From the NCBI GenBank assembly GCA_024697505.1, contig JAILFQ010000085.1, positions 1 to 16,820 on the forward strand: a stretch of DNA of 16,820 nt. The letters run 5' to 3'. Positions 432 to 16,802 of this stretch are shown here, in pieces. The first letter of the stretch is position 1; every line of letters starts with the position of its first letter. The notes below the pieces were generated by a model. The model was not told where the DNA came from, did no database searches, and saw only the letters and a program-made list of their open reading frames with translations. The DNA is from Lachnospiraceae bacterium. GTDB lineage: Bacteria > Bacillota > Clostridia > Lachnospirales > Lachnospiraceae. Both the position numbers and the translations under genes were made by a program.

Positions 432-1337
432 TTAAACAAAACTGCTTTTTTTATGTCTTCCCTCGTCATATATTCCCCAATGTTTTTCCGGCTCGTTTTC
501 GTCGTCGGACCCCTTCCAAGGCTCATCAAAAGCTTCGAATATAAATACCTGTATATCTTCCGAATCTGTCCACTTAAGAAGATTGGTAAGATATCTGCAC
601 TGAGTCTCGGCATTTGCCTCGTCACACTTCATTGCGGCGGAATTACTTTTTGTTGCCCAGCCGCACTCTGTAAATATCACTTCTTTGTCCGGATACCTGC
701 CCTTAACAAGTCTGTAATCATCAATGTTCATTTGCAGGGCCTTGTCAGCAGAAATTCCGTTCCAAAGAGGATAACTGTGTATAGAAATTATGTCTATAAC
801 CTTAACCAGTTCCTCCAATTGCAGCCACTCACTTGTACCCTCGTTGTAGGTTACAGGCTGTGTGCAGCCGGCTTTAAGTTTTTTTGCAAACTCCACCAGA
901 CGCTTGTCGGTAACAAGATCTTCTCCCCAGCCCGGTCTGTTTTCGTTTCCGACAGAAACGCACATTATTTCTTCCTTGTACTCATTTGCAAGAGATATAA
1001 GATTCTTTATTGCTCTGTCGTTGTATGCCGCATTTTTCTGCAGCCTATTGGCGTTAAGGCTCTCCTTCAGCCAAGGACAGCCGATGTTGTTAAACTCTCT
1101 TTTAGGGTCTATTCCAAGCATTACCTTAAGGGGAAGTTTTTCATCCCTAATAACTCTGAGTGCCGTTCTTGCATGAGTTCCCGGCTCATACATTCTTATA
1201 TAACTGTATCCATCTTCTACAAGAAGTTTAAGATCGTAAAGCACCTCTGCATACGACGGACATATTCCCGTTCTTGGGCTTTGTCCTCTTCTGTATCCGG
1301 AATAACAAATACCTTTCTTTGTCTTCCAGTATTTCAT
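432..1337 (-). CDS. Glycoside hydrolase family 17-like beta-1,3-glucanase, cytoplasmic
   Basis: This 301-residue protein has no signal peptide or membrane segment, so it should act in the cytoplasm. Two hallmarks of GH17 (a TIM-barrel, retaining, beta-1,3-glucan family) are visible. One is SVGNEN with the likely acid/base Glu132; the other is FTECGWAT with the likely nucleophile Glu224. A late FEAFDEPWKG strand (267-276) and the early YIRMYEPGTH stretch also fit the barrel. Length matches the bare catalytic domain. The ATG at 1337 follows a GGAGGTTAAAA ribosome binding site. It sits 17 nt after the phosphorylase stop, so the two are co-translated neighbours. The inferred role is hydrolysis or transglycosylation of imported beta-1,3-gluco-oligosaccharides. 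Some bacterial GH17 enzymes are transglycosylases, and the sequence alone does not separate the two. The family call is strong, the exact activity moderate. Confidence 0.87.
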   Translation of the reverse strand: MKYWKTKKGICYSGYRRGQSPRTGICPSYAEVLYDLKLLVEDGYSYIRMYEPGTHARTALRVIRDEKLPLKVMLGIDPKREFNNIGCPWLKESLNANRLQKNAAYNDRAIKNLISLANEYKEEIMCVSVGNENRPGWGEDLVTDKRLVEFAKKLKAGCTQPVTYNEGTSEWLQLEELVKVIDIISIHSYPLWNGISADKALQMNIDDYRLVKGRYPDKEVIFTECGWATKSNSAAMKCDEANAETQCRYLTNLLKWTDSEDIQVFIFEAFDEPWKGSDDENEPEKHWGIYDEGRHKKSSFV

Positions 1338-1354
1338 TTTTAACCTCCACCAAT

Positions 1355-4300: not shown

Positions 4301-4567
4301 CGCATTTGTTCCGTTTACTCTTACAAAAGTACGAAAACTCTTAAACCTTACGTTTTCATACTCTGTGCAGGCAGGAGTAAATTCCATTATTGCTTCTGCC
4401 TTACTGTTTACGCCAAAGCTTGCCACTGCCTGCCCTCTGTTGGTATAGAAAGCCCACATAGGTATTCCGTCTTCTCCGGTAAGACCCGGCAAAAAGCTGG
4501 AAAAAGGTGGCTTGCGGTCGTAGTCTTCAATATAAAAATCCCCGTCTTTTATCATTGTGTTTTCCAC
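1355..4567 (-). CDS. Large inverting glycoside phosphorylase, GH94/GH149/GH161 superfamily, probable beta-1,3-oligoglucan phosphorylase
   Basis: This 1070-residue protein lacks a signal peptide and is probably cytoplasmic. Enzymes of this superfamily cleave beta-gluco-oligosaccharides with phosphate to give glucose-1-phosphate. An N-terminal beta-rich region (about 30-330) precedes a helical barrel. The barrel carries GWNDAMNGLP (644-653), where Asp647 is the probable general acid. Further on is a Ser/Thr-rich ARLSGSTTE motif (952-960) at the expected phosphate-binding position. The length is nearer to beta-1,3-oligoglucan phosphorylases of GH149/GH161 (about 1100 residues) than to cellobiose phosphorylases (about 800). 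Neighbouring GH16 and GH17 genes support beta-1,3 specificity. GH161, the type seen in Gram-positives, is my preferred family from memory, not from a search. GH94 beta-1,2-oligoglucan phosphorylases have similar length and are the main alternative. The start is GTG at 4567, eight nt after GGAGG; the in-frame ATG at 4555 is too far from that site. A charged lysine/acidic loop lies at about 792-808. Confidence 0.82.
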   Translation of the reverse strand: MENTMIKDGDFYIEDYDRKPPFSSFLPGLTGEDGIPMWAFYTNRGQAVASFGVNSKAEAIMEFTPACTEYENVRFKSFRTFVRVNGTNAELFTGKGKRTMAIKKNSLRITEINPELGLEIRVDYFILPKEPIGALCRRVKITNISDKEMDLEALDGAAKIIPRGISNGQFEEMANLFKSWTDVRNTKALAPIFAMRASTDDSAMVSEIRDGYFFASVCDGKLMPFICDPVEVFGYDTSLFAAEGFNNKKFEELKTCKKIYNKVPCAFVPLKKKLAPNQDLYFVSFFGYTRNEDELNAVLKRMASTGKLSRYLNMADDIAFELTLDVHTQTNYPTFDKYIEQCYLDNFLRGGYPTLTGGKVLHLYSRKHGDPERDYNFFTIEAGYYSQGNGNYRDVCQNRRNDVFFCPKVGDFNVRNFMSLMQLDGYNPLEIRPETFTIEEGKMEEALRVIKSACSLTDKRKSYTNELKGFTALFTGKFKPADIFNEIKKEGLELTADPKKLVADLLGISKGHIEAGALEGYWSDHFDYNLDLIENYLLVFPDKEEELLAGEGYPYYENEMRVLKRDESYVLNGSSVRRFENIKREAPENIQEGFNKWGTNWKKDKKGELVTTSLQGKLLTLVLNKFSSMDSYGMGVEMEGGKPGWNDAMNGLPSMFASSMPETFELLRLIKFLRSAKLAGETSLPAEVADYFKKIYSLLKENRALSPLTDETGASAADFAYWDKMSSIREEYRDCVYRPLSGEKAVIAKAEVEGFLSMAEARIESGIERARRITGGFIPTYFTFDVTDYKVIKDENGEEKKDKDGRKFVKALGFKVKSVPLFLEGPARYLSVGVKDAKTVHEALLKTDIYDKKLGMFKTSESLENMSYEYGRIRAFTPGWLERESIFLHMEYKYLAALLVNGLYEEFYKAVKTSFIPFMKAEVYGRSILENSSFIASSANPDKDVVGRGYVARLSGSTTEVLTMWIHMFAGKRPFFTENDELCFCPEPALSGDFFGEDKTASFTFMGQCRLVYHNEEGRNTYGNGGAKVYAMRLLDVNGKETFVESNVLRGEDAEKVRDGGFVRIDAYLR

Positions 4568-4584: not shown

Positions 4585-5586
4585 TTACTTTTGTAAAGCA
4601 GTTATTTCCGGGCTTTGGTAAACCCTTACATAGTCAACTTCCATGGTCTTTGGCCAAATATTTTCATCAACTCCTTTAACTCCTCCCCAGTTACCTCCTA
4701 CGGCAATGTTAAGAAGAAGATGGAATCTCTTGTCAAAAGGCCACTCTTTGTATGTTGGAGAAGACTTATACTTTGTAGGTTTGTAGGTGAAAGTTTCTGT
4801 TCCGTCACAGGAAAAGATTATCTGGTCCGGAAGCCATTCAATGGCATATACATGAAACTCGGTACTTACATTTTCTTCTCTCTTTGTAGCTGTTTTCTGT
4901 GTTCCTATAGAATGATAATAGGACTCGGTATGTATGGAGTAATGGATAACATTCTGGTCGTAACCCACATGCTCCATAATGTCTATTTCTCCGGACTTTG
5001 GCCAGGAACCGTAGTCCCAGTCTGTTGGAAGCATCCATATTGCAGGCCATGTTCCTCTTCCGTCCGGAAGTTTTGCTCTTACTTCGATCTTTCCGTATAA
5101 AAAGTCTCCCTTTCCTCTGGAAACAAGTCTTGTGGAAGTATATTCAGCTCCGTTTTTTTCTTCTTTTCTGGCAGTAATAACCAAAAGGCCGTCTTTAACT
5201 TCAACATTTTCGCCCTTTGTGTAGTACTGAAGCTCGTTGTTGCCCCATCCGCCTGCGCCGGTATCGTAACCCCATTTTTCCGGGTCCGGTTCGCCTTCGT
5301 AATCAAACTCATCAGACCAGACAAGCTCATAATTAAGCTTCTCTCTGTCGTATTCATATCCTTTTGCCTTTATCATTTCCTCAGGCACCTGTGTTATTTT
5401 GGCAGGGTCCACGTAAGCATCGGAAACCTGGCTTCCCACTCTGTATTTGGATTTATCTTCAATACCCATAGACGCATCTTCTCCCTTTTCTTCAACATTT
5501 CCCTTGCCGGTACATGCTCCAAGTGCCATGGTCGCAAGCAGAGCCAGGGCCACCGTCTTTTTTATTATTCCGCTCTTTTTTTGCAT
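4585..5586 (-). CDS. GH16 endo-beta-1,3-glucanase (laminarinase type), surface lipoprotein
   Basis: This 333-residue protein has a lipoprotein signal. A basic start and a hydrophobic stretch are followed by ALGAC with lipidation at Cys25, so it is probably tethered to the outer face of the membrane. A charged linker (about 26-85) leads to the GH16 jelly-roll (about 87-325). The jelly-roll opens with LVWSDEFDY and closes with MEVDYVRVYQ. The active site is GEIDIMEHVG (199-208), with nucleophile Glu200, Asp202 and acid/base Glu205. The extra Met gives the ExDxxE bulge form typical of laminarinases; lichenases have ExDxE. The enzyme should therefore cut internal beta-1,3 (possibly mixed-linkage) glucan bonds outside the cell and feed oligosaccharides to the transporter encoded upstream. 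The ATG at 5586 has an AGGAGA site 5 nt upstream and lies 14 nt after the permease stop. No carbohydrate-binding module is attached. Confidence 0.94.
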   Translation of the reverse strand: MQKKSGIIKKTVALALLATMALGACTGKGNVEEKGEDASMGIEDKSKYRVGSQVSDAYVDPAKITQVPEEMIKAKGYEYDREKLNYELVWSDEFDYEGEPDPEKWGYDTGAGGWGNNELQYYTKGENVEVKDGLLVITARKEEKNGAEYTSTRLVSRGKGDFLYGKIEVRAKLPDGRGTWPAIWMLPTDWDYGSWPKSGEIDIMEHVGYDQNVIHYSIHTESYYHSIGTQKTATKREENVSTEFHVYAIEWLPDQIIFSCDGTETFTYKPTKYKSSPTYKEWPFDKRFHLLLNIAVGGNWGGVKGVDENIWPKTMEVDYVRVYQSPEITALQK

Positions 5587-5600
5587 TTTATTCTCCTGAT

Positions 5601-6518
5601 TTATTCTCCGGTAATACCGGTGTTTTCTATTCCCTCTATAAACTTCTTCTGGACAAAGCTGTAAAGCAGCAAAAGAGGTACTATGGAAATGAATGTTGCC
5701 GCCATCTTGTATGCTTCGTTTAACTTAAATGCCGAACCCGAACTGGATACAGCGTTTTCAAACTCACTGTCAAAAAGGGAAAGCTTTGAAGGAAGAAGTT
5801 CCAGTCCGCTTCTTAACAAAGTTCCAGTTACATATGTCTCGTTCCAATTCCAAACAAATGCGAAAAGGAAAACCACCAAAACAGTGCTTAAAGAAAGCTT
5901 AAGGCCTATATGCCAGAAAACTCTGAAGGCACCGGCTCCGTCTATCATTGCCGCCTCGTCCAGAGATTTTGGTATAAGGTTGAAAAAGTTCTGGAATATG
6001 AGTATAAGTATGGTGGAATTTACCCCCTGTCCCAAAAGGGCCATAAGCATCTGAGGGATCGGAGTTCCTATAAGGGTAAACTTCATTGCTTCCTGAACCG
6101 TAACAAACATCATAAGCCTTGGTATCATAAGTACGGAGGTAGGAACAATAAAGCACATAAGGATCATTACAAACCAGAAACGTTTTCCGGCAAATTCATA
6201 CCTTGAAAGGGCAAAGCCTGTAAGTGCCGCGCAAAATGTCTGCATTATTGCCAGCGCTCCGGAAAAGAGTATGGAGTTTTTCAGCGTAACCGGAAGTTTT
6301 AAAACCTTAAAGGCAACTTTTAAGTTGTTTAAAGAAATGCTCCTTGGCACCCAGTCCACCACAGGGTCTATTATGTCCTCCGGTGTCATAAAGGTTTTAA
6401 CAACTATTCTGAGAATAGGTTCCAAAAAAACAAAACTGATAAGCACAAGTAAAAGATAGAATGTAATCTTTAGTATTGTTCCTTTTAAAGCCCTCTTTGA
6501 TATTTTTAATCTTTTCAT
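5601..6518 (-). CDS. Carbohydrate ABC transporter permease, MalG-like (second pair)
   Basis: This 305-residue membrane protein has about six hydrophobic segments, the first at about 17-40. It carries the cytoplasmic EAA loop DEAAMIDGAGAF (187-198), which docks the ATPase in binding-protein-dependent importers of the CUT1 sugar family. A RYEFAGKRFWF stretch (106-116) and a C-terminal KFIEGIENTGITGE tail are typical of the MalG-type partner. It follows the MalF-like gene by 33 nt, with a GGGAGG site before the ATG at 6518. It is the last transport gene before the GH16 enzyme. The substrate is inferred to be beta-gluco-oligosaccharide from that context. No dedicated binding protein adjoins this pair; the nearest exported neighbours are the DUF5696 and NHL/YIP1 proteins. 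Confidence 0.94.
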   Translation of the reverse strand: MKRLKISKRALKGTILKITFYLLLVLISFVFLEPILRIVVKTFMTPEDIIDPVVDWVPRSISLNNLKVAFKVLKLPVTLKNSILFSGALAIMQTFCAALTGFALSRYEFAGKRFWFVMILMCFIVPTSVLMIPRLMMFVTVQEAMKFTLIGTPIPQMLMALLGQGVNSTILILIFQNFFNLIPKSLDEAAMIDGAGAFRVFWHIGLKLSLSTVLVVFLFAFVWNWNETYVTGTLLRSGLELLPSKLSLFDSEFENAVSSSGSAFKLNEAYKMAATFISIVPLLLLYSFVQKKFIEGIENTGITGE

Positions 6519-6551
6519 ACAAGGCCTCCCTGCGACCGTTAATTCTTAGTA

Positions 6552-7436
6552 CTAATAATGCTTTACCTTGGTCTTCTTTTCCTTCAGTATCAAAAATGAT
6601 AAGCCCATGAGCAAAAGCACCGTAAGGGTATATACCCAGGCGTACGTTGCCGCAAAACCCAGACCGCCGCTGGTGTTTGCCATATATTTTACAATAAGGG
6701 TATATACAGGATTTATGTCGTATGTACCTATTGAAGCTATTGTAAATACCGTTACTATAAGCGCTATCGGTCTTATTATCGGAAGGGTTATCTTCCAAAG
6801 TATCTGCCAGTTCGTAGCAGAATCTATTTTTGCAGCTTCATAAAGGCTCGGGTTGATCTTCTGCAGTCCGTTGATAAAAAGGACTATCGGTATACCGGTA
6901 AACCAGAGTATTGTGGAAAGCTGGGTAAAGGTATCGGATACCAGACCTGCAAGAGGCCTGGAATAACTTGCTATCATATCCACAATAAAAAGGTCCAGGT
7001 ATTCGTCATCCGCAAAAGCCTGCATGTCGCTGGTTTTTGTTTCAAGAAGCTTTGCCATTACAGGGCCGGACATAATAATTACCGGCAGGAAGTAAAGCGT
7101 TCTGAAAAAGCCCTTTAATTTTGTTATATGTTCAAGTATGTAAGCTATAATAAAGGCAACAACCACAATTACAAAGGTGTATGGGATCGCCATCTTTAAG
7201 TAGCCTGCAAGGGCCGGTAAGAACTCGGTATTCTTAAAAAACGCGGTTATGTAATTGGACATTCCCGCAAAACTAAGTTCAAAGCCCAGAATTGTTGAAT
7301 TTACATTCATAAAGCTTAAGACAATAGTTGCCGCAAACGGAAAGGCTGTAAATATTGCAAAACCTATTATCCATGGCAACATAAACAGATATCCGTTCCT
7401 GTTTTGTCTTTGTTTCCACGTTTTCATCTTCTTCAT
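6552..7436 (-). CDS. Carbohydrate ABC transporter permease, MalF-like (second pair)
   Basis: This 294-residue membrane protein begins with a short basic N-terminus and RNGYLFMLPWIIGFAIF, the usual opening of MalF/UgpA-type sugar permeases. About six hydrophobic segments follow. Its EAA loop reads YEAAKIDSATNW (199-210). Ser206 replaces the Gly that normally follows the Asp in this motif, which the other three permeases here retain. A segment of about 40 residues (130-170) rich in acidic residues separates two membrane spans. The ATG at 7436 follows AAGGAG by 9 nt; a second Met at codon 4 is a possible alternative. The gene is 43 nt after the DUF5696 stop and pairs with the MalG-like gene downstream. 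Confidence 0.93.
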   Translation of the reverse strand: MKKMKTWKQRQNRNGYLFMLPWIIGFAIFTAFPFAATIVLSFMNVNSTILGFELSFAGMSNYITAFFKNTEFLPALAGYLKMAIPYTFVIVVVAFIIAYILEHITKLKGFFRTLYFLPVIIMSGPVMAKLLETKTSDMQAFADDEYLDLFIVDMIASYSRPLAGLVSDTFTQLSTILWFTGIPIVLFINGLQKINPSLYEAAKIDSATNWQILWKITLPIIRPIALIVTVFTIASIGTYDINPVYTLIVKYMANTSGGLGFAATYAWVYTLTVLLLMGLSFLILKEKKTKVKHY

Positions 7437-7479
7437 GAAACAGTGCTCCTTGCTCCCTTTTTAGTGCTGTCCTTCCGGC

Positions 7480-9846
7480 TTAGCGAAAAATCGCCGAAAG
7501 TGCAGGTACTTTAACTCCATCCACCGTCTCGTCGGACTGTGTATAGTTAATAATTACGTAATGTGTTTCTTTGCCGTCTTTATACGTGTTTTTAATAAGA
7601 CCGCTCTTTAATACTTCTCTTCCCGTCCAATCCATTCCCATGGTCCTTGAAAGTACTCCGTTTACCCCTTCGTAAACCCTCTTTGCTATTGCCTTGTACT
7701 CCGTATATTCTGTAGAATACATGTCCGAAGACGCCGTATCCGACAAGAGATAAGACGGTTCACCGGTAAACACAAATGATGGGTAAACATTGTAGTCTAT
7801 CATTCTTAAAATGTCCGCCTGAGTATAGAAAGAAAAATTTGAATACGGTGCATACATTTCCATTGTTCCGTTTAATACAAGCTGGAGAAACGGCACTGTA
7901 TCGGACTCAAATACGAACTGGGAATTTCCCACAGGCGCTTTAAGGTACCTGTTTGTATATTTCCAAAGGTACATATTTGGATTTTCAAGATTTAAGGCAA
8001 GTTTTCCTGCTGCCGCCTCCATACTTTCGGCTATAAGCTTTGCGGAATCCGTAAGAGATGTTACAACTCCGTTTCTGTCGTATGTAGCCGTAAGAATGTT
8101 GGAAGATCCCGTTATGGTTAAAGATCCGGCATAGGAAGAAGCCTTCTTTGCTGCGGTTTCTATCCATTTTGCCGTCTTTTCCGGAAGGGCATAACCTGTA
8201 TACTGAACAGGCGCATTCTTAGGATAAAGGACAGTTCTGTCAACACTTAAATACCAGGTATTAACATGCTTGGCCGCATTAGTGTAGTAGCTTAGCATTT
8301 TGTCGTTTATAACCGTAAAGTTTCTTGAGAAGGAAAGGTCTTTGCCTCTTTCCGCAAATTCCTTCATAAGTCCCTTAAAGTCTTTACTGCTTCCGATACT
8401 CTTTGTAAAAGAGAAGCTTGCAGGCTTTGCAAGAGTTTCCGACTTCTTTTGCCAGCCTATCAACCCGGAATTCACATTTTTTATTCCTGCCTCTTCAAGG
8501 TCGTTTAATATGTCTCTAACATCATCAACCGTTGTTGTAACTACCTGCGTTGTTCCTATAACGCTCTTCTTTACATCAGACATAAGGAAGTCCGCTCTCA
8601 TAGGAATGTCTCCGGCAGTTACGTCTTTTTCCGTCAATATCCCTTCTTCCACAAGATGTTCCCTGTAGGCAAGGGCCATGCCTGTGTAGTCTGCGGCAAA
8701 GCCCTTGCTTCCGTCTCCCGCCAGGAATTTATATGTCATTCTTACATCAAATATGTTTGGTTCTTCCATAAGGGTAAAGTAGCCGGAACCCGCATTGTTA
8801 TATACCTGATAGTAGGTAAGGTTATACTCAAAACGGGGATATGCGTAGGTGTACTTTATTCTTTTGGTCTCTTCCGGATTTACTATAATATCCATGTATT
8901 CGGCACCGGACTCTGCGTAGGCAACAAAGGCTGCCTGCCTGTTCCCGTGGGCTATTCCAAACACAGGCATAACCGGATCTTTTACAGGAACAGCATCCGT
9001 AACTTCGCTGTAGTAAAAGGTTTCTGTAGACGGGTCGGACCCGTATACGTCTCCTTCGTAAGAAGTAAATGCCACGTTGTTGTCCGTAAATCTTATAAGT
9101 GCGCCGCTTCCGTCCGGTACAAGAACATAACCCGGTACCATATACTTGGAAACAGCTTCACCGTAGTCTCCCGTTTCCGGGTCGTAATACTGGGCAAGAC
9201 CGCCGCTTGCACCAAGAAATGGAGTAAGTATTACGGCTGTTACACTTTTAAGACCTTCACCGCTCATCTCTTCGAAAGGGACAAAGTAGCTGATCTCGTC
9301 CTCACCAAGAGTTATATATACTGAGAGTTTAAGGTCTATGGCCTCCATATTCACATCCAGTTTGTAGTCTCTTCCGTTTCCGGAGAGAACAGAGGATGCA
9401 CCCTTTTCGGAGGCGGATGAAATATATTTTGTGGTTTCAAGTTCACTGTACTCTACCGTAACAAGTGAATTTGCTATGCCTATATAAGTCGCATTCAGGT
9501 TCTTTTCTTTTGGCTCTGCCGCAAGAAGAAGTTCTTCATCGTTTGAGGCGGCCGCCATGTTTTTCTTTATTTCGCTTGAGTAGGCAGCGTCCAATCCCGT
9601 TTTCCAGGTATAGCCGTTACGCTTGTCTACTATCATAAATATGTCTCTGTCGTCTCTGTAATAGTACTTAAGCGTATCTGTTTCCGTAAGAAAGTCGTAT
9701 CCGTTTGTTCCTATGGTTTCAACAAGAGCTTTTTCCGGTGCAGGTCTTGTGTCCCTGTTTGTGTCTATATAGCCGGTTGCTCCTGTGGTAAACAAAAGAC
9801 AGGCAAGAAGGGCTATGGAAGTTATTCTGAATTTTTTAGATGACAT
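7480..9846 (-). CDS. Exported DUF5696-type protein with a possible glycosidase-like fold, function unknown
   Basis: This 788-residue protein has a Sec-type signal (basic KKFR, then a hydrophobic stretch to about residue 24) and no other obvious membrane span. The N-terminal half (about 35-400) looks beta-rich. It contains VPDGSGALIRF (243-253), which I associate from memory with DUF5696 proteins. The second half opens with VDDVRDILNDLEEAGIKN followed by GLIGWQKK (461-468). This strand-helix pattern resembles the start of TIM-barrel glycosidases. The final beta-rich tail (about 755-788) resembles the C-terminal sandwich of such enzymes. No catalytic pair can be assigned. The ATG at 9846 overlaps the 3' end of the NHL/YIP1 gene by 11 nt, which suggests coupled translation and a joint role. 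It could be an extracellular enzyme, or a second glycan-binding component for the orphan permease pair. The DUF call is from memory; the function is open. Confidence 0.75.
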   Translation of the reverse strand: MSSKKFRITSIALLACLLFTTGATGYIDTNRDTRPAPEKALVETIGTNGYDFLTETDTLKYYYRDDRDIFMIVDKRNGYTWKTGLDAAYSSEIKKNMAAASNDEELLLAAEPKEKNLNATYIGIANSLVTVEYSELETTKYISSASEKGASSVLSGNGRDYKLDVNMEAIDLKLSVYITLGEDEISYFVPFEEMSGEGLKSVTAVILTPFLGASGGLAQYYDPETGDYGEAVSKYMVPGYVLVPDGSGALIRFTDNNVAFTSYEGDVYGSDPSTETFYYSEVTDAVPVKDPVMPVFGIAHGNRQAAFVAYAESGAEYMDIIVNPEETKRIKYTYAYPRFEYNLTYYQVYNNAGSGYFTLMEEPNIFDVRMTYKFLAGDGSKGFAADYTGMALAYREHLVEEGILTEKDVTAGDIPMRADFLMSDVKKSVIGTTQVVTTTVDDVRDILNDLEEAGIKNVNSGLIGWQKKSETLAKPASFSFTKSIGSSKDFKGLMKEFAERGKDLSFSRNFTVINDKMLSYYTNAAKHVNTWYLSVDRTVLYPKNAPVQYTGYALPEKTAKWIETAAKKASSYAGSLTITGSSNILTATYDRNGVVTSLTDSAKLIAESMEAAAGKLALNLENPNMYLWKYTNRYLKAPVGNSQFVFESDTVPFLQLVLNGTMEMYAPYSNFSFYTQADILRMIDYNVYPSFVFTGEPSYLLSDTASSDMYSTEYTEYKAIAKRVYEGVNGVLSRTMGMDWTGREVLKSGLIKNTYKDGKETHYVIINYTQSDETVDGVKVPALSAIFR

Positions 9847-11911
9847 TTAATATCAACTCCCTTCCAACAGATACAATAAAACCGAAAAGCTGCTCAAACA
9901 TAATGGATACTATAAGTCCTATTATTACTGCCACCGCCATAAAGAAGAAGGTAATGATAAAGCTTCTTACCGTTTCTCCAAAGGAATAATCGTGAACATT
10001 CATAAGTCCCGTAAAAAGGTTTACAAAGCTCCAGATTCCGGTAACCACCATTATAATTGTTAATATAAAGCTTTCGTTGTAGGTCATTGCGTAGCTTAAA
10101 ACCGTAACGGAAAGCATGCCCACAATAAGCGGGGCTACTGCATAAGCAGGTAAAATAAAGACTGTCTTAAGGCTTCCGTCTCCATCATTGATTGAAGTAA
10201 CCAACCAGTTGCATATTACAAAAAGTCCGATAAGGACAAAGAATCCTGCAACGCTTCCTCCGATATCCATATCTTCAACCGCAACATACTGGTAAATAAA
10301 GCCTTTCATGGTGCTGTATACCATATAGGTTATAAAGGTTAAAACATAAATGATAGCTGCGCCTATAACGCTTGCGTGACCATGACCCGCAAATTTTGAG
10401 GCTCCTCTTACGGAATTGGCAACTCTTATGTCGTAATAACGGTCACCCGGGTGTCTTGCCACTCTGAACATAAAGAGGACATCTCCCAGAACCGGTGTAT
10501 CCAGCATTTTATTTGTAAGGTCTTTTTTAAAGTTTTTAAGTTTACCCTTTTTATCCACCCTCTTTATTACAATATTTACAACAATAAGAAGGAATATAAG
10601 AGCAAATACATATGGAAGTATTACCTGAAGTTTCTGGTTTCTTACTTCCCAAAAGGCTTCCGAATAATAATTCCTGTTTTCGGCAACTTCAAAATGCTCC
10701 AGAGATTCTTCGTAGCGCTGTGCGTGGAAAAGTGCCTTTCCAACCCCGTTATGTGCAAGCACAGACATTTGGTTAAGTCTTAAAACATCTCTCCATGCAC
10801 TTAAAGACTCTTCATATTTTCCGGCTTCATAAAGCCCCATTGCTCCGTAGATCTGCTTTGCATAGTCTGTAGGCTTAAAGGACTGAAGGTAGCCCTTATC
10901 TTTATCCACGCCCCATATAAAGCCGTTGTTATCCACAGCAATGGACGGAAGTGAGGAGAAAAGCCCCGCAATATCCACATTTGTAACAAAAGAACCGAAT
11001 TCGAAAATGAACTCTCCGTTTTTGGAGTATATCTCAATGTAGCCTCTCTCTGTACAGGTATAAATAATTCCGTTTTTGTCGGTGGTAACATCTGTTACGT
11101 CATCCCATCCCACAATACCTTCCATAAACATATTGCCACCGGAAGTGTTGTGCTTTTTCAGACACTCATCCGCATTTCCCATACTGGTGGAGTAAACAAT
11201 ACCCATGTCATCCACGTACACGTTGGAAAAGGTTGTAGGTACGGTTGCAGTAAGGTTTGCAAGCTGTTCTCTTGTAAAAAGTATTTTTTGAACAAGCTGG
11301 GAAGGTGTAAGTTTGGTCTTGTTTACCGCGAAGTAGCCGAGAAAATCTCCGGTTCCCGCAAGCTGAATAATACCGTTATATACGCCTTCGCTTATTACAT
11401 ACATATTTCCCGCGTTGTCCACAGCCACTTTAAGCGGGTCGAAATTGGTATCCGAAAATGAGGGTTGGGTAGGTCTTGTAAAGGTATTTAAAAGCTCAAG
11501 CTCCGGTGAATACTTTAAAACCGCTTTGGCCCCGTTATCCGCCACATATATGCAGCCGTCTTTTGTAACAAAGACTCCCATAGGAGTTTTAAGTTCTCCG
11601 CCTTTTATCTCGTCCACAACCGTGTCTGTGTCTATGTTGTAGATAACAATCCTCTTGTTTCCGGAATCGCATATAAACATGCGATTGTCCTGCGTAATAA
11701 AAACATCCGTAGGCTTGGAAAGTTCAAGTTTTGTAACCGTTTTATCCGGGAGATAGGCATCCTGCGTCCTTGGAAACTCATAACTTCCGGATTTAATTTC
11801 AAGAGTATACGTATAACTGGTTGCCTGGTTTGCAGAGGCTGTTGTTGCCGGTGCCATAATGGTAAGTACAAAGGCAAGAAGTATGCATACCGTTATTTTT
11901 CCTCTCTTCAT
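9836..11911 (-). CDS. Exported NHL-propeller / TPR / YIP1-domain membrane protein, function unknown
   Basis: This protein has 691 residues from the chosen ATG. A signal peptide (about 1-27, ending TASA) precedes NHL/six-bladed-propeller repeats (about 60-345). The repeats show as periodic blocks such as GVFVTKDGCIYVADNG and IAVDNNGFIWGVD. Two TPR-like helical hairpins follow (about 351-420: GLYEAGKYEESLSAWRDVL and ALFHAQRYEESLEHFEVA). Next come a membrane span (about 430-449), a basic cytoplasmic stretch (450-465) and a YIP1-like five-span membrane region (about 480-690). The propeller and TPRs should lie outside the cell, with the YIP1 part in the membrane. The start is ATG 11911, seven nt from GGGAGGA; a TTG one codon upstream is less likely. 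The gene lies between the two permease pairs and overlaps the DUF5696 gene. A role as scaffold or accessory of the importer is inference only. Confidence 0.82.
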   Translation of the reverse strand: MKRGKITVCILLAFVLTIMAPATTASANQATSYTYTLEIKSGSYEFPRTQDAYLPDKTVTKLELSKPTDVFITQDNRMFICDSGNKRIVIYNIDTDTVVDEIKGGELKTPMGVFVTKDGCIYVADNGAKAVLKYSPELELLNTFTRPTQPSFSDTNFDPLKVAVDNAGNMYVISEGVYNGIIQLAGTGDFLGYFAVNKTKLTPSQLVQKILFTREQLANLTATVPTTFSNVYVDDMGIVYSTSMGNADECLKKHNTSGGNMFMEGIVGWDDVTDVTTDKNGIIYTCTERGYIEIYSKNGEFIFEFGSFVTNVDIAGLFSSLPSIAVDNNGFIWGVDKDKGYLQSFKPTDYAKQIYGAMGLYEAGKYEESLSAWRDVLRLNQMSVLAHNGVGKALFHAQRYEESLEHFEVAENRNYYSEAFWEVRNQKLQVILPYVFALIFLLIVVNIVIKRVDKKGKLKNFKKDLTNKMLDTPVLGDVLFMFRVARHPGDRYYDIRVANSVRGASKFAGHGHASVIGAAIIYVLTFITYMVYSTMKGFIYQYVAVEDMDIGGSVAGFFVLIGLFVICNWLVTSINDGDGSLKTVFILPAYAVAPLIVGMLSVTVLSYAMTYNESFILTIIMVVTGIWSFVNLFTGLMNVHDYSFGETVRSFIITFFFMAVAVIIGLIVSIMFEQLFGFIVSVGRELILNVI

Positions 11912-11918
11912 CAAAAGT

Positions 11919-11925
11919 TCCTCCC
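11919..11925 (-). promoter_or_regulatory. Ribosome binding site choosing ATG 11911
   Basis: GGGAGGA on the minus strand is 7 nt from the ATG at 11911 and only 4 nt from an in-frame TTG at 11914. The spacing and the start codon both favour the ATG. Confidence 0.7.
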
Positions 11926-11931
11926 AAAAGC

Positions 11932-12819
11932 CTACTTAATTCCCGAATGGCTCATAGTATTCATTACCTGAGACTGCATTACAATAAATATAATAAGGTT
12001 AGGTACAAAAAGTATCACTCCGGCTGCCGCCTGCAGTCCCGCTGCCGCAACCGTATTATTGGTAGATAATGATGACAAATAGAAAGCAAGTGTCCTCATA
12101 GAGTCGTCCGTAATAAAATTATTGGAGGCCTCAACCGCTCCCCATACCTGCTGGAAAGTAAGCACTATACTTGTTGCAAGTGCAGGTTTTGTAAGAGGAA
12201 CTATTACCTTTCTTATAACGGTAATATCATTTGCTCCGTCTATAACCGCCGCCTCTATAAGTGCGTCCGGTATCTGATCCGTAAACTGCTTAACAAGGAA
12301 AAGTCCTACCGGCATTGCTGCAAGAGGAAGCACATGTGCCCACCAGGTATCCAAAAGCCCAGCTTTTACTATCACAAGGTACCTCGGAACCGCTACCGCG
12401 GTAGGTACAAACATAAGCGCCAGCTGGTTTATTTCAAAAAGCACTTTCTTGCTTCTGAATTTCTTTTTTGAAAATACATAGGCCGCAAGTACCGTAATAA
12501 AAAGGTTAAGTACAATGGTTATAAGGGTAACCAGTACCGAGTTTAAAAGGTACCTGGACATCGGTATTCCCGTTGTGCCGGACAATTCGAAAAGATCTTT
12601 AAAGTTCTTAAGGGTAGGGCTCTTTACGAAGATAGTCGGCGGGAAGGCAAACAACTCGCCAAGCGGTTTAAAAGCCTGGTTTATTACATATATAACCGGA
12701 ATTATCATAAACACAGCAAGGGGAATAAGAATAAGATAAAACTTAATCTGGCTGGCCGAGAAATATTTCGGGTTAATCTTCGCCCCCATGTATTTGGATT
12801 TTTTATGTCTTTTTTTCAT
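11932..12819 (-). CDS. Carbohydrate ABC transporter permease, MalG-like (first pair)
   Basis: This is a 295-residue integral membrane protein with about six spans and a very basic N-terminus (MKKRHKKSKYMGAK). The EAA loop IEAAVIDGANDI (188-199) contains the conserved Gly195. The C-terminus reads NTMSHSGIK, a common ending in CUT1 sugar permeases of the MalG type. The reading frame is open upstream to 12894, but those starts overlap the preceding gene. The ATG at 12819 is preferred because GGAGAGG lies 4 nt upstream of it, which leaves a 40-nt gap to the previous stop. It should form a heterodimer with the MalF-like protein encoded just before it and take substrate from the large binding protein. 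Confidence 0.93.
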   Translation of the reverse strand: MKKRHKKSKYMGAKINPKYFSASQIKFYLILIPLAVFMIIPVIYVINQAFKPLGELFAFPPTIFVKSPTLKNFKDLFELSGTTGIPMSRYLLNSVLVTLITIVLNLFITVLAAYVFSKKKFRSKKVLFEINQLALMFVPTAVAVPRYLVIVKAGLLDTWWAHVLPLAAMPVGLFLVKQFTDQIPDALIEAAVIDGANDITVIRKVIVPLTKPALATSIVLTFQQVWGAVEASNNFITDDSMRTLAFYLSSLSTNNTVAAAGLQAAAGVILFVPNLIIFIVMQSQVMNTMSHSGIK

Positions 12820-12823
12820 ATTT

Positions 12824-12830
12824 CCTCTCC
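12824..12830 (-). promoter_or_regulatory. Ribosome binding site choosing ATG 12819
   Basis: GGAGAGG on the minus strand sits immediately before the ATG at 12819. Longer candidate starts (12855, 12867, 12894) lack a comparable site, and two of them overlap the preceding permease. Confidence 0.65.
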
Positions 12831-12859
12831 GATTCAACTCTGACATGTTAGACATCTTT

Positions 12860-13789
12860 TTACTCATCTTTAGAGCCAAAGAACTTATGTGCAACCTTGT
12901 TGAAAAGGTAAACCACTATCAAAAGCATAAGTGATATTGCCGCCGCATAGCCCATTTCGTATCTTATAAATCCGTAGTCGTCTATGTGGTTGGTTATAAG
13001 CTGTCCGGCGTATTCCGGTGTAGGGTTTGCACCGGAAAGGGTAACTCCTATCCAGCCCATGTTAAAGGCGTTCACAATGGCCATTACCGCGCCAAAGAGC
13101 ATCTGCGGTTTCATGGACGGAATGGTTATGTAGATGATCTCCTGAAATCTGTTTCTCATACCGTCTACATAAGCCGCTTCATATAATTCTTCGTTAATAT
13201 TTAAAATACCGGATATCATTGCCAAAAAGCCTATTCCCATTGCAGACCAAAGGGAAATGATTATCATTATCTGCATAAAGTAGTCTTTGGTAAGCAAAAA
13301 CTGTATCGGTGTATCTATTAAGTTTAATTCCAGGAGAATGTTATTAATAATACCTCTCTGGTCTCCGGAAAAGATCGTCTTCCAAACCACCCCTATAAAT
13401 ACCTGTCCAACCATGGAAGGGGTGTATATTGCAAGGGAAATGATGGTTCTTGGTATGCTCTGTATCTGTGCCAGCATCCAGGCCAGCAAAAATGATATTG
13501 CATATCCTCCCGGCCCTACTATAAGAGCGTATAAAAAGGTATTGGGAAGAACCTTTTTCATAAACACCGTATCTTGGGTAAAGAGGTATATGTAATTCAT
13601 AAGACCGGTAAACGACGGTTTATTAATAACGTCGAAGTATGTAAAGCCAAGAGCAATGGCTATAACAACCGGTACAAGTATAAAGAGGGAAAACAGGATC
13701 GCATACGGAAAGAGAAGAAGCATGGAACGTCTTCCTTCGCGCACATCCGCCGCACTCTTTTTTATTCTTTTTGTGTTAGCTGCTATCAT
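12860..13789 (-). CDS. Carbohydrate ABC transporter permease, MalF-like (first pair)
   Basis: This 309-residue membrane protein has a basic, hydrophilic N-terminus (1-22) and then about six spans starting at [19 protein letters not shown]. The EAA loop [13 protein letters not shown] (203-215) with Gly210 identifies a CUT1-type sugar importer subunit that contacts the ATPase. The C-terminal GSKDE tail is hydrophilic. The ATG at 13789 follows a GGAGG site and is 30 nt after the binding-protein stop, so it belongs with that protein and with the MalG-like gene that follows. No ATP-binding subunit is encoded in the window. A shared MsmX/UgpC-type ATPase elsewhere in the genome is the usual solution in Firmicutes and is assumed here. 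Confidence 0.94.
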
Positions 13790-13819
13790 TTTGGCCTCCG
13801 CTTTTACCTGCCGGCAAAA

Positions 13820-16777
13820 TTACTGTTTTCTGTGGGCTTCAATCTGTTCCTCAACCCAGTCTATATCTCTTATTACATAAGGTTTTATAAGGTTTCCGTC
13901 TTCGTCCGTATAACCCAGTTCCTTCATTTTCTTCTTGATCTCTCGGTTTATAGGAATTGTCTGCTCATCTATTACAACCTGGGCGGAAACACCTTCATTT
14001 ATCATTTTGTTCCAGATATCCGAAAGGGATCTTTCCACAAGGTACTGTCCCATGGAACGGGGAACGTCTCTGAGCCATTTTATGGAGTCCATAATAACGT
14101 CCTTGTCTTCCCTGTCTATAGGTGCTTCGTTTAAAGCCTCAAGATTGGACGGTATCCAGAAGAATTCCTTTCCGTAAGTGGATCTTAAAGTATATGTGTA
14201 ATCCACCTGAGTTTCTTTTTCGGTCCACCATTTAAGGAACTCCCAGGCTTCATTTGCTTTTTTGGTTTCCTTAAATACTATTGCTCCGGTTCCGTTGGCA
14301 ACGTACCATCTGGAAACGCTTCCGTCCTCTTTTACAGTGCCCGGGTACGGAGCAAGGGCCCATTGCCCTTCAAGCTCCGGCGCACCGTTCTTCAGGAGGA
14401 TGTATTCTGAAGAGTCGATTATTCCCACAGGCAAAATTGAATATCTGAAGGAGTTAAAAAACGAGTTAACCTGTTTATCAAGTGAATATGCCATAAAGAG
14501 GTTTCCAAGTGCCGAAACTCCCTTAACGGCTTCCGGTCTGTCTATAGCTGTTGAAAGACCGTCTTCTGCGTAAAGCTTTCCATCATTTTGGAAAATAAGC
14601 GGTACCGTCTGGTAAAACCACTTGTATCCCACTCCGGCGGAAATATTGTGATAGAAGTTCATTCCGAATCTTTGAAGTTCCGGAAGCTGGTTTACAACAT
14701 CATCCCAGGTATCCGGCGGTGTAAGAGAAAGACTTTCGTATATATCCTTTCTGTACACCAGAGTGTAGAAATTAAGGGTTTCCGGAAGTGCGTATACGCC
14801 TTCGTTAAACACATAGGAGACAAAGGCTCCCGGGGTAAAGCGGTCTGCCACTTCCCAGAAATCATCAAATGATGAAAGGTCGTAAAGCGCATCTCTGCAG
14901 GCAAGTTCAAAAGGCATGTGGGATGAAAGACCAAGGGCCACATCCGGTGTTTTGTCTGCTGCGGCTGCCAGCGTAAGCTTATTGGCATCCGGCATGATAC
15001 TTACTTTTACCTTGATTCCCTTTTTTGGAGTAAATTCCGAATCTATCATTTTTTGAAGAAGATCTACATGGGTAACAGCTCTGTTTACCCAGACAGTAAG
15101 CACTTCTTCATCATCTGTTTTTGTGCTGTATTTATTGTCCGTAAAGCTTAGGGCGAGTTTCTTTACCCTTGCTCCGAATTTCTTAAAGAATCCGGCTTCC
15201 GCCTTCTTTATCTGCCCTTCGTCTCCGGTAAGATAAACAGTATCCAGGGTAAATTTTCCGGTAAGTATCTGGGAAGTAAAGTTACTCATTGCCACAAGGA
15301 CCGAGTTGTCTCTTCCGGTAAGTTTTTCCGTATAAAGGGCAATTTCCTCCGGATACTTTTGCATCTGCTCTATAAACATAAGGGCTTTATCCATATCCGA
15401 GAGAAGCGCGGAATTAATTCCATAGGTTGCATTATCCTGAGAAAGATAACGAATGTGCTGTATAAGAGTTACGTACGCTTCAAGATAATCCGGAATTTCC
15501 GGAATAAACTTGGTCATATTCCAGGTTCTGTACTTATCTTTATCCGCACCGGTAACTTTGGATATTTCAAGAGAGAACCAGGCAACATGTTCGGAAATGA
15601 GTCTTGCACATCTCCAGGCCTCTGTTACGGCTTCGTTTTCAGACTTTAAGCAGATTTCGTATTCTTTGCCTGCTTCCAGGTAAACATAAAGGATCTCTCC
15701 CTCTGAGTCTTTTAAAGTCTCGTTTGCCCATGTACTGCCTGTTGGTTTAAACGCATAGCTTTTAAACTCTTTAAAAGGTATCTCTCCGTTTATATAAATG
15801 CTTTCAAAAGCGTCATATTCTTCTTTTTCGTTTAAATAATGGAAAGTAAGTGCATAAAGGCCGGTTTTTTCCGGAGTTATGCTGTAATAAAGTTCTGTAC
15901 CCGGCTCGGTAAACTTTATGGAATTAAGAAGTTTATTCTTAACGTTATAGGGTTCTACCGATGGAGTATCTTTAGACATATAAATAGCCTGTGTGGAGTT
16001 TTTGTATGTGTATGCTGTGGCATCCACATTTATAACTTCATCCGACTTTTCCACACCTTGATATTTTGAAATGTATTCCTTGTAACTTTCCGGTTCCGCA
16101 AGAGGCTCGGAAACAAGAAGTTCCCCCGTCATAAGGCCACTTGCCGCAACACTTTCAAGCACTATTTTGTTTTCTCCCTTTTTAAGTTCGAAAAGCATAG
16201 GCTCGTCTGTTACATAAGTACCACTGTAGAAGTATCTGTTTTGAAAATCGTCATATCTGATCTGCTTTGGTGCAATTTCATCACCGTAGCTGTCTGTTAT
16301 ATAATCTTTTGTTTCGTCTGACCATAAGAGCGGCAAAGCAACAATCTTCATTTCGTGATAAGGAGCTGCCCCGTTAATGGTAACGCTTACCGCAAAGTCC
16401 GACATGGTGTTACTTACAGGCTTATAGTTAAGCCTCATTATATAAAGTCCCGCTTTAGGTACGTTTACCTTATATGTTACCTTCTGACCGTATTCCAAAG
16501 TTGCGTTCTTACCGGAAACACTGCATTCTCCGGTTTTTTCAGGATAAGAGGTGTATTCCCCTTCACCGTAATACTTTGTTATATCGCCGTCATATTCCTT
16601 TATCCAATCTGAATACATCAAGCTTCCGTTAAGGGAATCCGCAAGAAGTTTTGTTGCCTTGACAACTGCAGCTTCATCCGGTTTTTCAACGTATTCGGCA
16701 TTGTTGCCCGAAAAAGCCAGAGCAAGAACCCCCACAATTGCCACTATTATTACCAAACCCATAATTCGCTTCTTCAT
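13820..16777 (-). CDS. Large multidomain extracellular solute-binding protein with duplicated N-terminal beta-sandwich region
   Basis: This protein has 985 residues from the chosen ATG, more than twice the usual 400-450 of sugar-binding proteins. A basic start and a hydrophobic stretch (about 6-22) form a Sec signal or uncleaved anchor; there is no lipobox Cys. Two similar beta-rich modules follow at about 85-225 and 285-385. Each has a GLY-x(8,9) strand, a short linker, an IN-G turn and a W-x-x-E segment, which suggests an internal duplication of carbohydrate-binding-like domains. A helical region (about 405-540) leads to a complete family-1 solute-binding domain (about 557-985). That domain includes DTWDDVVNQLPEL, WYVANGTGAIVF and AWEFLKWWTE. 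The C-terminus (NREIKKKMKELG) is typical of the family. The likely role is capture of long beta-glucan fragments for the adjacent permeases. As first gene it is nearest the putative operator. The start was chosen from AAGGGTGA 5 nt upstream of the ATG; a TTG at 16798 is the longer alternative. Confidence 0.9.
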   Translation of the reverse strand: MKKRIMGLVIIVAIVGVLALAFSGNNAEYVEKPDEAAVVKATKLLADSLNGSLMYSDWIKEYDGDITKYYGEGEYTSYPEKTGECSVSGKNATLEYGQKVTYKVNVPKAGLYIMRLNYKPVSNTMSDFAVSVTINGAAPYHEMKIVALPLLWSDETKDYITDSYGDEIAPKQIRYDDFQNRYFYSGTYVTDEPMLFELKKGENKIVLESVAASGLMTGELLVSEPLAEPESYKEYISKYQGVEKSDEVINVDATAYTYKNSTQAIYMSKDTPSVEPYNVKNKLLNSIKFTEPGTELYYSITPEKTGLYALTFHYLNEKEEYDAFESIYINGEIPFKEFKSYAFKPTGSTWANETLKDSEGEILYVYLEAGKEYEICLKSENEAVTEAWRCARLISEHVAWFSLEISKVTGADKDKYRTWNMTKFIPEIPDYLEAYVTLIQHIRYLSQDNATYGINSALLSDMDKALMFIEQMQKYPEEIALYTEKLTGRDNSVLVAMSNFTSQILTGKFTLDTVYLTGDEGQIKKAEAGFFKKFGARVKKLALSFTDNKYSTKTDDEEVLTVWVNRAVTHVDLLQKMIDSEFTPKKGIKVKVSIMPDANKLTLAAAADKTPDVALGLSSHMPFELACRDALYDLSSFDDFWEVADRFTPGAFVSYVFNEGVYALPETLNFYTLVYRKDIYESLSLTPPDTWDDVVNQLPELQRFGMNFYHNISAGVGYKWFYQTVPLIFQNDGKLYAEDGLSTAIDRPEAVKGVSALGNLFMAYSLDKQVNSFFNSFRYSILPVGIIDSSEYILLKNGAPELEGQWALAPYPGTVKEDGSVSRWYVANGTGAIVFKETKKANEAWEFLKWWTEKETQVDYTYTLRSTYGKEFFWIPSNLEALNEAPIDREDKDVIMDSIKWLRDVPRSMGQYLVERSLSDIWNKMINEGVSAQVVIDEQTIPINREIKKKMKELGYTDEDGNLIKPYVIRDIDWVEEQIEAHRKQ

Positions 16778-16789: not shown

Positions 16790-16802
16790 AACCACCAAAT
16801 CT

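What the first reader, a model, noticed from the sequence alone, without database searches (positions are those of the whole stretch)
5601..16777. Composite sugar importer: one giant binding protein, two permease pairs, two exported proteins of unknown function
The sequence shows gene order SBP, MalF-like, MalG-like, NHL/TPR/YIP1 protein, DUF5696-type protein, second MalF-like, second MalG-like, all on one strand with gaps of 43 nt or less and one overlap. A normal CUT1 importer has one binding protein and one pair. The second pair has no binding protein of its own, and the two exported proteins sit exactly between the pairs. Inference: the seven genes encode one machine in which the DUF5696 and/or NHL protein serves as substrate-handling or docking subunit, perhaps for long beta-1,3-glucan chains. 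It would be a Gram-positive answer to the SusCD-type glycan uptake system.
Basis: partly seen in the sequence, partly recalled or inferred. Interest (0 to 1): 0.82.

Follow-up and report, generated by a model that had tools for sequence, protein, structure and literature searches.

The report
Sugar importer with dead-glycosidase partner
This gene cluster carries a sugar-importing system that recurs in many bacteria together with the same two unstudied exported proteins, one of them shaped like a sugar-cutting enzyme that seems to have lost its cutting residues in most copies examined; the idea that half of the importer lacks its own binding protein comes from the DNA piece being cut off too early.

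Summary
The gene order is real and conserved. With enough flanking DNA, NHL/TPR/YIP1 lies directly 5' of DUF5696 in 94 of 94 cases and the second MalF-type gene directly 3' in 82 of 83; the exact seven-gene order holds in 46 of 64. One central claim falls: the window is a whole contig ending 43 nt before the giant binding protein's likely start. In 9 of 9 close relatives that have the giant protein and extend further, a second, SBP-like gene lies there. Complete loci thus have about eight genes: two binding proteins, two permease pairs, and two exported proteins tied to pair two. DUF5696 has a GH129 fold, but the aligned GH129 catalytic positions are both acidic in only 15 of 72 members, not in the window's. 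The Caldicellulosiruptor bescii xylan locus appears to be the same eight genes, published as two ABC transporters plus a 'GH129' (PMC8579813). Best reading: a dual CUT1 importer whose second half needs a mostly non-catalytic glycosidase-fold subunit and a propeller/YIP1 membrane subunit. Complex formation is inferred, not shown.

The parts
13820..16777 (-). Giant solute-binding protein: exported, N-terminal half with at least one CBM35-like region, C-terminal SBP_bac_1 domain. TTG start at 16798, likely ATG at 16777
   Evidence: SBP_bac_1 E 6e-20, residues 578-864; profile A3: 5ysb Lin1841 E 5e-30 for positions 571-885; cycloisomaltooligosaccharide glucanotransferase 5x7g E 1e-9 for positions 261-406
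12860..13789 (-). MalF-type permease of pair 1 (MF1)
   Evidence: BPD_transp_1 E 5e-12; MF1 separated from MF2 with 0 errors
11932..12894 (-). MalG-type permease of pair 1 (MG1)
   Evidence: BPD_transp_1 E 6e-12
9836..11914 (-). NHL beta-propeller / TPR / transmembrane helix / YIP1 membrane domain (two genes in 23 of 92 loci judged)
   Evidence: Yip1 E 1e-12, NHL E 3e-6, TPR; model; NHL propellers as best matches; fused 69, split 23
7480..9846 (-). DUF5696: exported GH129-fold protein; the GH129 nucleophile position aligns with Gly580
6552..7436 (-). MalF-type permease of pair 2 (MF2), a subfamily found beside DUF5696
   Evidence: BPD_transp_1 E 2e-6
5601..6518 (-). MalG-type permease of pair 2 (MG2)
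   Evidence: BPD_transp_1 E 2e-14
4585..5586 (-). GH16 laminarinase; N-terminus looks like a lipoprotein signal (by eye)
   Evidence: (laminarinase 3iln E 7e-87)
1355..4567 (-). GH161 beta-1,3-oligoglucan phosphorylase; no hydrophobic segment found
   Evidence: 9qqk GH161 phosphorylase, E 1e-227, residues 8-1063
432..1337 (-). GH17-like protein
   Evidence: Glyco_hydro_17 E 2e-6, 28.1 bits, just under the 28.2 cut-off

Best explanation
A dual CUT1 oligosaccharide importer with an obligate accessory module, here for beta-1,3-glucan. Complete loci carry about eight genes: an ordinary SBP, the giant SBP, MF1, MG1, NHL/TPR/YIP1, DUF5696, MF2, MG2. Shown: this order and its recurrence; that DUF5696 and NHL/YIP1 travel with the MF2/MG2 permease subfamily; that the DUF5696 model has the GH129 fold, with the aligned catalytic pair not conserved and a Gly at the nucleophile position here. 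Inferred: the giant SBP delivers to MF1/MG1, the ordinary SBP to MF2/MG2, and a shared MsmK-type ATPase drives both. DUF5696 acts mainly as a non-catalytic, glycan-facing ancillary subunit of the MF2/MG2 importer, held at the membrane by the propeller/TPR/YIP1 protein. Together they grip chains released by the surface laminarinase and present them to the importer; cytoplasmic GH161 phosphorolyses the oligosaccharides. The two importers probably take different sizes or decorations of one polysaccharide.
For: Adjacency 94/94 upstream, 82/83 downstream; 54 of 55 MF2-type permeases (270 bits or more; next best 171) lie 3' of DUF5696 on the same strand, 52 of them within 200 nt (against 20, 71, 95). 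All 37 of 398 sampled genomes of the phylum with full-length DUF5696 also have the giant-SBP N-domain (36 at over 400 bits, one contig-cut); two more have it without DUF5696, and seven have only weak matches of 54-167 bits. A second SBP lies within 1 kb in 25 of 30 fully flanked seven-gene loci. EAA-type loops in 82/82, 81/82, 84/88 and 80/87 of MF1, MG1, MF2, MG2. GH129 fold; GH129 pair both acidic in 15 of 72. Fusion/fission of NHL-TPR with YIP1, 69 against 23. Distance matrices of the seven proteins correlate at r 0.83 to 0.93. OB_MalK proteins elsewhere in the genome. C. bescii operon induced on xylan; shared MsmK shown by deletion there.
Against: No interaction, binding or mutant data. 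The catalytic-column assignment rests on about 15-20% identity, and 15 of 72 members keep acidic residues at both positions, so some may be active enzymes. Other acidic positions are well conserved (684 acidic in 70 of 72; 245 and 271 Asp in 67 of 72 each), so another chemistry is possible. The correlated distances could come from shared descent of a linked operon; no housekeeping control was run. In the window itself the second SBP is not visible, and no orthologue was found in the rest of the 70%-complete genome. Five of 30 fully flanked loci gave no second-SBP hit, and one MF2-MG2 pair has no DUF5696 beside it.
Confidence: 0.5

Rival explanations
1. Two ordinary, separate CUT1 importers plus an active extracellular enzyme (DUF5696 as a GH129-like glycosidase) and an unrelated sensor/scaffold (NHL/YIP1), grouped because they serve one polysaccharide. 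This is the published reading of the C. bescii locus as far as the passages read go.
For: PMC8579813 names two transporters (XloEFG, AxoFGE) and lists the gene in the DUF5696 position as GH129; full-length GH129 fold; 15 of 72 members acidic at both aligned catalytic positions; the two halves can be encoded apart (11 of 64 DUF5696 loci; 5 of 18 giant-SBP loci, which I had picked because they were not yet in a fetched DUF5696 locus).
Against: 57 of 72 members lack the aligned pair, among them the window and the seven Caldicellulosiruptor-type loci L073, L074, L077, L078, L079, L082, L084. An enzyme need not be tied to one permease subfamily (54 of 55) while the surrounding enzymes vary widely.
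Confidence: 0.27
2. One physical multi-subunit machine holding both permease pairs, both SBPs, DUF5696 and NHL/YIP1, in which chains are threaded or passed between the two importers.
For: Exact seven-gene order in 46 of 64 loci; genome-level co-occurrence 37 of 37; cross-half distance correlations as high as within-half ones (SBP-DUF5696 0.90, SBP-MF1 0.87).
Against: The two halves can be separate, can appear in reverse order (6 of 64) and differ in copy number (DUF5696 against giant SBP: G122 10/4, G195 10/4, G225 8/4), so a fixed 1:1 complex is not required. No structural evidence for contact.
Confidence: 0.15
3. A sensory device: DUF5696 and the propeller detect extracellular glycan and signal occupancy of the MF2/MG2 pair to a regulator, so that pair 2 acts mainly as a transceptor.
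For: One MF2-MG2 pair (G225:C18) has a dCache chemoreceptor gene upstream instead of DUF5696. This is one case.
Against: EAA-type ATPase-docking loops kept in 84/88 MF2 and 80/87 MG2; an SBP usually accompanies the locus.
Confidence: 0.06

Closest known systems
Caldicellulosiruptor bescii xylan degradation locus, xloEFG-X-GH129-axoFGE (PMC8579813; passages read)
   Same: Apparently the same eight genes in the same order: L079, whose DUF5696 is 99% identical to a C. bescii protein, reads giant SBP, MF1, MG1, NHL/YIP1, DUF5696, MF2, MG2, SBP, then a GH43 protein and the start of a GH10-like one. Operon induced on xylan.
   Different: Serves xylan; the second SBP is 3' of MG2. The paper treats it as two transporters plus a GH129 enzyme and, in the passages read, does not comment on the recurring unit. 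Locus tags were not compared.
CUT1 (MalFGK-type) ABC importers with shared MsmK/MsmX ATPase
   Same: SBP_bac_1 proteins, MalF/MalG-type permeases with EAA-type loops, no ATPase gene in the operon.
   Different: Two permease pairs and two accessory proteins in one operon; a giant SBP with a CBM35-like part.
GH129 (NagBb, ZgGH129) and GH101
   Different: Catalytic pair not conserved; no PF11308 match in the window protein; tied to a permease pair.
Heteromeric amino-acid transporters (4F2hc/CD98hc with LAT1)
   Different: Analogy only: many amylase barrels score as high, the transporter type differs, and 4F2hc is membrane-anchored and covalently linked to its partner (recalled).
GH161 beta-1,3-glucan loci of Bacillota (PMC6484121, passages read)
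   Same: GH161 with GH16 and ABC permeases, mostly without an ATPase gene.
   Different: The word YIP1 does not occur in that text; DUF5696-like proteins are not mentioned in the passages read.
SusCD of Bacteroidota
   Same: Purpose only: capture and uptake of surface glycan.
   Different: No SusC or SusD domain in the window's ten proteins; CUT1 permeases instead.

Membership tests
CUT1 ABC importer | SBP_bac_1 / SBP_bac_8 binding protein | tested here: met
   SBP_bac_1 E 6e-20 in the giant SBP
CUT1 ABC importer | MalF- and MalG-type permeases with EAA loop for the ATPase | tested here: met
   BPD_transp_1 in all four; loop pattern in 82/82, 81/82, 84/88, 80/87 across loci
CUT1 ABC importer | MalK/MsmK-type ATPase available | tested here: met
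   None in the operon; three OB_MalK matches elsewhere in the genome. Which one serves this operon is unknown.
CUT1 ABC importer | Own binding protein for the second pair | tested here: inconclusive
   Window contig ends too early; 9 of 9 window-type relatives with the giant SBP and more upstream DNA have a second SBP-like gene; no orthologue in the own incomplete genome
GH129 glycosidase (DUF5696 protein) | Overall fold | tested here: met
GH129 glycosidase (DUF5696 protein) | Catalytic Asp/Glu pair (D435/E478 in NagBb, numbers recalled and consistent with the sequence printed) | tested here: not met
   window G580/E621; both acidic in 15 of 72. Alignment at about 15-20% identity.
GH129 glycosidase (DUF5696 protein) | Match to the GH129 profile PF11308 | tested here: not met
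   only PF18952 in the window protein at E 0.001
GH161 phosphorylase (1355-4567) | Full-length similarity to a solved GH161 | tested here: met
   9qqk E 1e-227, residues 8-1063
GH161 phosphorylase (1355-4567) | Phosphorolysis of beta-1,3-oligoglucan | not testable with these tools
   needs an assay
SusCD-type uptake system | TonB-dependent SusC and SusD lipoprotein | tested here: not met
   no such domain in the ten window proteins
Yip1 family (C-terminal part of the NHL protein) | Yip1 domain with about five transmembrane helices | tested here: met
   PF04893 E 1e-12; five hydrophobic segments from residue 514 on; helical model

The most novel reading that the evidence does not exclude
An undescribed class of composite glycan importer, widespread in Bacillota and present in Treponema: two CUT1 importers and two binding proteins docked on one extracellular scaffold made of a retired glycosidase (DUF5696), a beta-propeller and a YIP1 membrane anchor, which hands one polysaccharide's fragments to both import channels, whatever the polysaccharide.
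Probability: 0.2. Interest if true: 0.85.

Novelty: new variant of a known kind. Interest (0 to 1): 0.62.

Why it matters
ABC sugar importers are textbook machines of one binding protein, one permease pair and one ATPase pair. Here a permease subfamily is nearly inseparable from two exported proteins of unknown role, in dozens of loci with many different polysaccharides, apparently including a model biomass degrader whose operon has been seen but read as two plain transporters plus an enzyme. If DUF5696 is a repurposed glycosidase serving as a transporter subunit, it parallels in bacteria the 4F2hc-type heavy chains of animal amino-acid transporters and would change how many glycan-uptake loci are annotated. 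The question can be tested directly by deleting single genes in Caldicellulosiruptor or Paenibacillus.

Tried and rejected
Rejected: 'DUF5696 replaces a missing binding protein'. The missing SBP is best explained by the contig end. Rejected: 'laminarin machine'. Neighbouring enzymes in other loci include GH43, GH5, GH3, GH42, GH26, GH28, GH31, Melibiase, pectic acid lyase and GH2 families (25 of 77 families are shown there; the 87 proteins were picked by me out of 199 neighbours, which were left of 219 after I set aside eleven near-duplicate loci).

Led nowhere: the Rfam scan gave 0 hits. A solved-structure search by sequence with the DUF5696 profile gave 0 at E 1. A search of the own genome for the second SBP gave 0. 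Paper searches: DUF5696 0 papers; Caldicellulosiruptor with YIP1 0; NHL repeat with ABC transporter, permease, xylan and operon 0; YIP1 family protein with ABC transporter permease 3 papers, none relevant by listing; some searches gave, by their listings, nothing further on this unit apart from the papers cited. I looked at passages of PMC10318527 and PMC11212667, which do not describe it. The library holds only open-licence PMC papers, so absence there is weak.

Limits: ORFs were called mechanically, so starts are approximate and L092 lost its MF2 to an opposite frame. The structure models have mean pLDDT 74 and 80. Copy numbers in fragmented genomes include fragments. L125 shows no SBP next to MF1 and is not in the 9 of 9. 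In two of the 54 MF2 cases the matches are 519 nt (G329) and 992 nt (G195:C93) from the DUF5696 match; in four large genomes only 106 of 152-220 permease candidates were scored. The second-SBP profile hits range down to 36 bits (L096). The first EAA-loop pattern was too strict and was replaced. The phylum searches scored at most three candidates per genome, so they give presence, not copy number.
Full report
WHAT IS THERE. The window is a whole contig (C93 of a 1.9-Mb, 70%-complete genome in 390 contigs). Ten minus-strand genes run almost without gaps: giant SBP, MF1, MG1, NHL/TPR/YIP1, DUF5696, MF2, MG2, GH16, a 1070-aa phosphorylase and a GH17-like gene. The phosphorylase is GH161 by full-length similarity to a solved GH161 (9qqk, E 1e-227), and GH16 is closest to laminarinases. 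So this copy most likely serves beta-1,3-glucan. That a characterised GH161 acts on beta-1,3-gluco-oligosaccharides is from PMC6484121 (passages).

RECURRENCE. The genome has three further contigs with the same series as far as they reach (L005, L006, L007). A scan of genome contigs with the window's DUF5696 gave twelve loci: Lachnospiraceae, Clostridiales, Epulopiscium, Treponema, others, and one contig labelled Anaerolineaceae. Eight of the twelve are long enough to hold all seven genes, and all eight show them in order, three with the giant SBP cut by the contig end. Among 398 genomes of the phylum, PF18952 scores over its cut-off in 39 and full length in 37. I fetched 60 regions around DUF5696 (of 63 listed), 20 around giant SBPs, 18 in the same family and one check, and annotated them with profiles built from the window and its relatives. 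NHL/YIP1 is immediately 5' of DUF5696 in 94 of 94 with room, MF2 immediately 3' in 82 of 83; the exception, L092, does have MF2 there by a separate search (G432:C1:658675). Of 64 DUF5696 genes with at least 7.6 kb upstream and 2.3 kb downstream, 46 show the exact seven-gene order, 6 show NHL/YIP1-DUF5696-MF2-MG2 followed by SBP-MF1-MG1, 11 show only the former block, 1 is L092. In 22 genomes, 55 permeases match the MF2 profile at 270 bits or more, the next best at 171. I compared their places by eye with the DUF5696 places: 54 lie 3' of DUF5696 on the same strand (52 within 200 nt, one at 519 nt, one at 992 nt), one (G225:C18) lies behind a chemoreceptor gene. MF1 and MF2, and MG1 and MG2, form cleanly separate clades (0 errors; branch support 0.98 for MalF, 0.64 for MalG).

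TWO HALVES. Block A is giant SBP-MF1-MG1; block B is NHL/YIP1-DUF5696-MF2-MG2. All 37 genomes with full-length DUF5696 have the giant-SBP N-domain (36 above 400 bits, G163 cut by a contig end). Two further genomes (G164, G214) have the giant SBP without DUF5696, on contigs of 3.8 and 4.3 kb, and seven genomes have only weaker matches of 54-167 bits. Block A stands alone in 5 of 18 giant-SBP loci that could be judged (of 20 fetched; chosen because they were not in a DUF5696 locus already fetched, so biased towards separation). Block B outnumbers block A in five of 17 genomes counted (DUF5696 against giant SBP matches: G122 10/4, G195 10/4, G225 8/4, G142 19/10, G100 11/6); the numbers are equal in nine (G394, G126, G435, G349, G401, G161, G299, G453, G053), 4/5 in the window's genome and 0/1 in G164 and G214. 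The distance matrices of the seven proteins correlate at 0.83 to 0.93 over 32 loci, as strongly across blocks as within them; the nearest neighbour agrees between SBP and DUF5696 for 28 of 44 loci. Linked vertical descent could give the same, so this is weak evidence for contact.

THE MISSING BINDING PROTEIN. The contig ends 43 nt upstream of the giant SBP's likely ATG. In L009, L010, L012, L014 and L018 and L123, L126, L127 and L128, that is, in all window-type loci (DUF5696 43-56% identical to the window's) that have the giant SBP and reach further, the next gene upstream encodes a 541-587 aa protein of one family; the five aligned ones are 51-60% identical to L010's and begin like lipoproteins (by eye). 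Pfam sees it only weakly (SBP_bac_1 E 1.6e-4 in L018, nothing in the other four scanned), but its profile matches solved SBPs (22hh, E 5e-12). L125, also window-type, shows neither SBP beside MF1. Other loci carry an ordinary SBP_bac_1 protein 5' of the giant SBP or 3' of MG2. Over all, 25 of 30 seven-gene loci with both flanks have a second SBP within 1 kb; L055, L075, L086, L094 and L099 gave no hit. It cannot be proven for this strain: its genome, as assembled, holds no orthologue.

THE OTHER PARTS. The NHL/YIP1 model (pLDDT 80) shows a beta-rich propeller region, TPR helices, a long helix with the first membrane span and a helical membrane domain; the structure matches listed are mostly NHL and other propellers. 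It is one gene in 69 loci and two (NHL-TPR and YIP1) in 23, which suggests that the pieces work together. The giant SBP's C-terminal domain is nearest to Lin1841 of Listeria, a beta-1,2-glucooligosaccharide SBP (name; ligand from a reference title and recall), and positions 261-406 match a part of cycloisomaltooligosaccharide glucanotransferases that I recall as CBM35. The four permease families keep the EAA-type loop (MF1 82/82, MG1 81/82, MF2 84/88, MG2 80/87). No ATPase gene lies in the operon; three OB_MalK proteins lie elsewhere in the genome.

SUBSTRATES. Of 87 neighbours scanned, 24 match SBP_bac_1; the enzymes are spread over GH43 (4), GH5 (4), GH3 (3), GH42, GH26, GH28, GH31, Melibiase (2 each), pectic acid lyase, GH2 (1 each) and others. 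The importer is a general design, not a laminarin device.

PRIOR KNOWLEDGE. The DUF5696 of L079 is 99% identical to a Caldicellulosiruptor bescii protein, and L079 reads giant SBP, MF1, MG1, NHL/YIP1, DUF5696, MF2, MG2, SBP, GH43, then a cut GH10-like gene just under its cut-off. This matches the published operon xloEFG-X-GH129-axoFGE-xynF-... of the C. bescii xylan degradation locus, induced on xylan and read as two CUT1 transporters (PMC8579813, passages). I infer the match from gene order and organism; locus tags were not compared. In that organism deletion of msmK impairs growth on di-, oligo- and polysaccharides. In the open-licence library I found no paper naming DUF5696 and none joining YIP1 to these loci.

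VERDICT. Best supported: a dual CUT1 importer whose second half has two near-obligate accessory proteins, one of them a largely non-catalytic GH129-fold protein. Physical assembly and role are inference. It is a new variant of a known kind, with a sharply testable open question.

Noticed in passing
L140 (G225:C18), 792-3934: An MF2-MG2 pair with a dCache/HAMP/MCP chemoreceptor gene directly upstream in place of DUF5696, the only such exception among 55 MF2-type permeases.
   Followed up: partly
L016 (contig labelled Anaerolineaceae): Carries MG1, NHL/YIP1 and a split DUF5696 53% identical to the window's Lachnospiraceae-type protein: recent transfer or a mis-binned contig.
   Followed up: no
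L013 and L018 (Treponema contigs): The same operon, with GH16 and GH161 in L013, in spirochaetes, which have an outer membrane; how the giant SBP and DUF5696 are placed there is unclear.
   Followed up: no
L125, upstream of MF1: A window-type locus with MF1 to GH161 but no detectable giant SBP or second SBP 5' of MF1.
   Followed up: partly
G142 and G100 (whole genomes): 19 and 11 DUF5696 matches in one genome, fragments included: strong lineage-specific expansion of the block.
   Followed up: partly
P0080, P0081, P0108: A database source names these DUF5696 proteins 'ABC-type transport system, substrate-binding component'; most others have no functional name.
   Followed up: no
G000 contigs C121 and C375: Two further giant SBP genes in the window's genome without a DUF5696 match on the same contig.
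   Followed up: no
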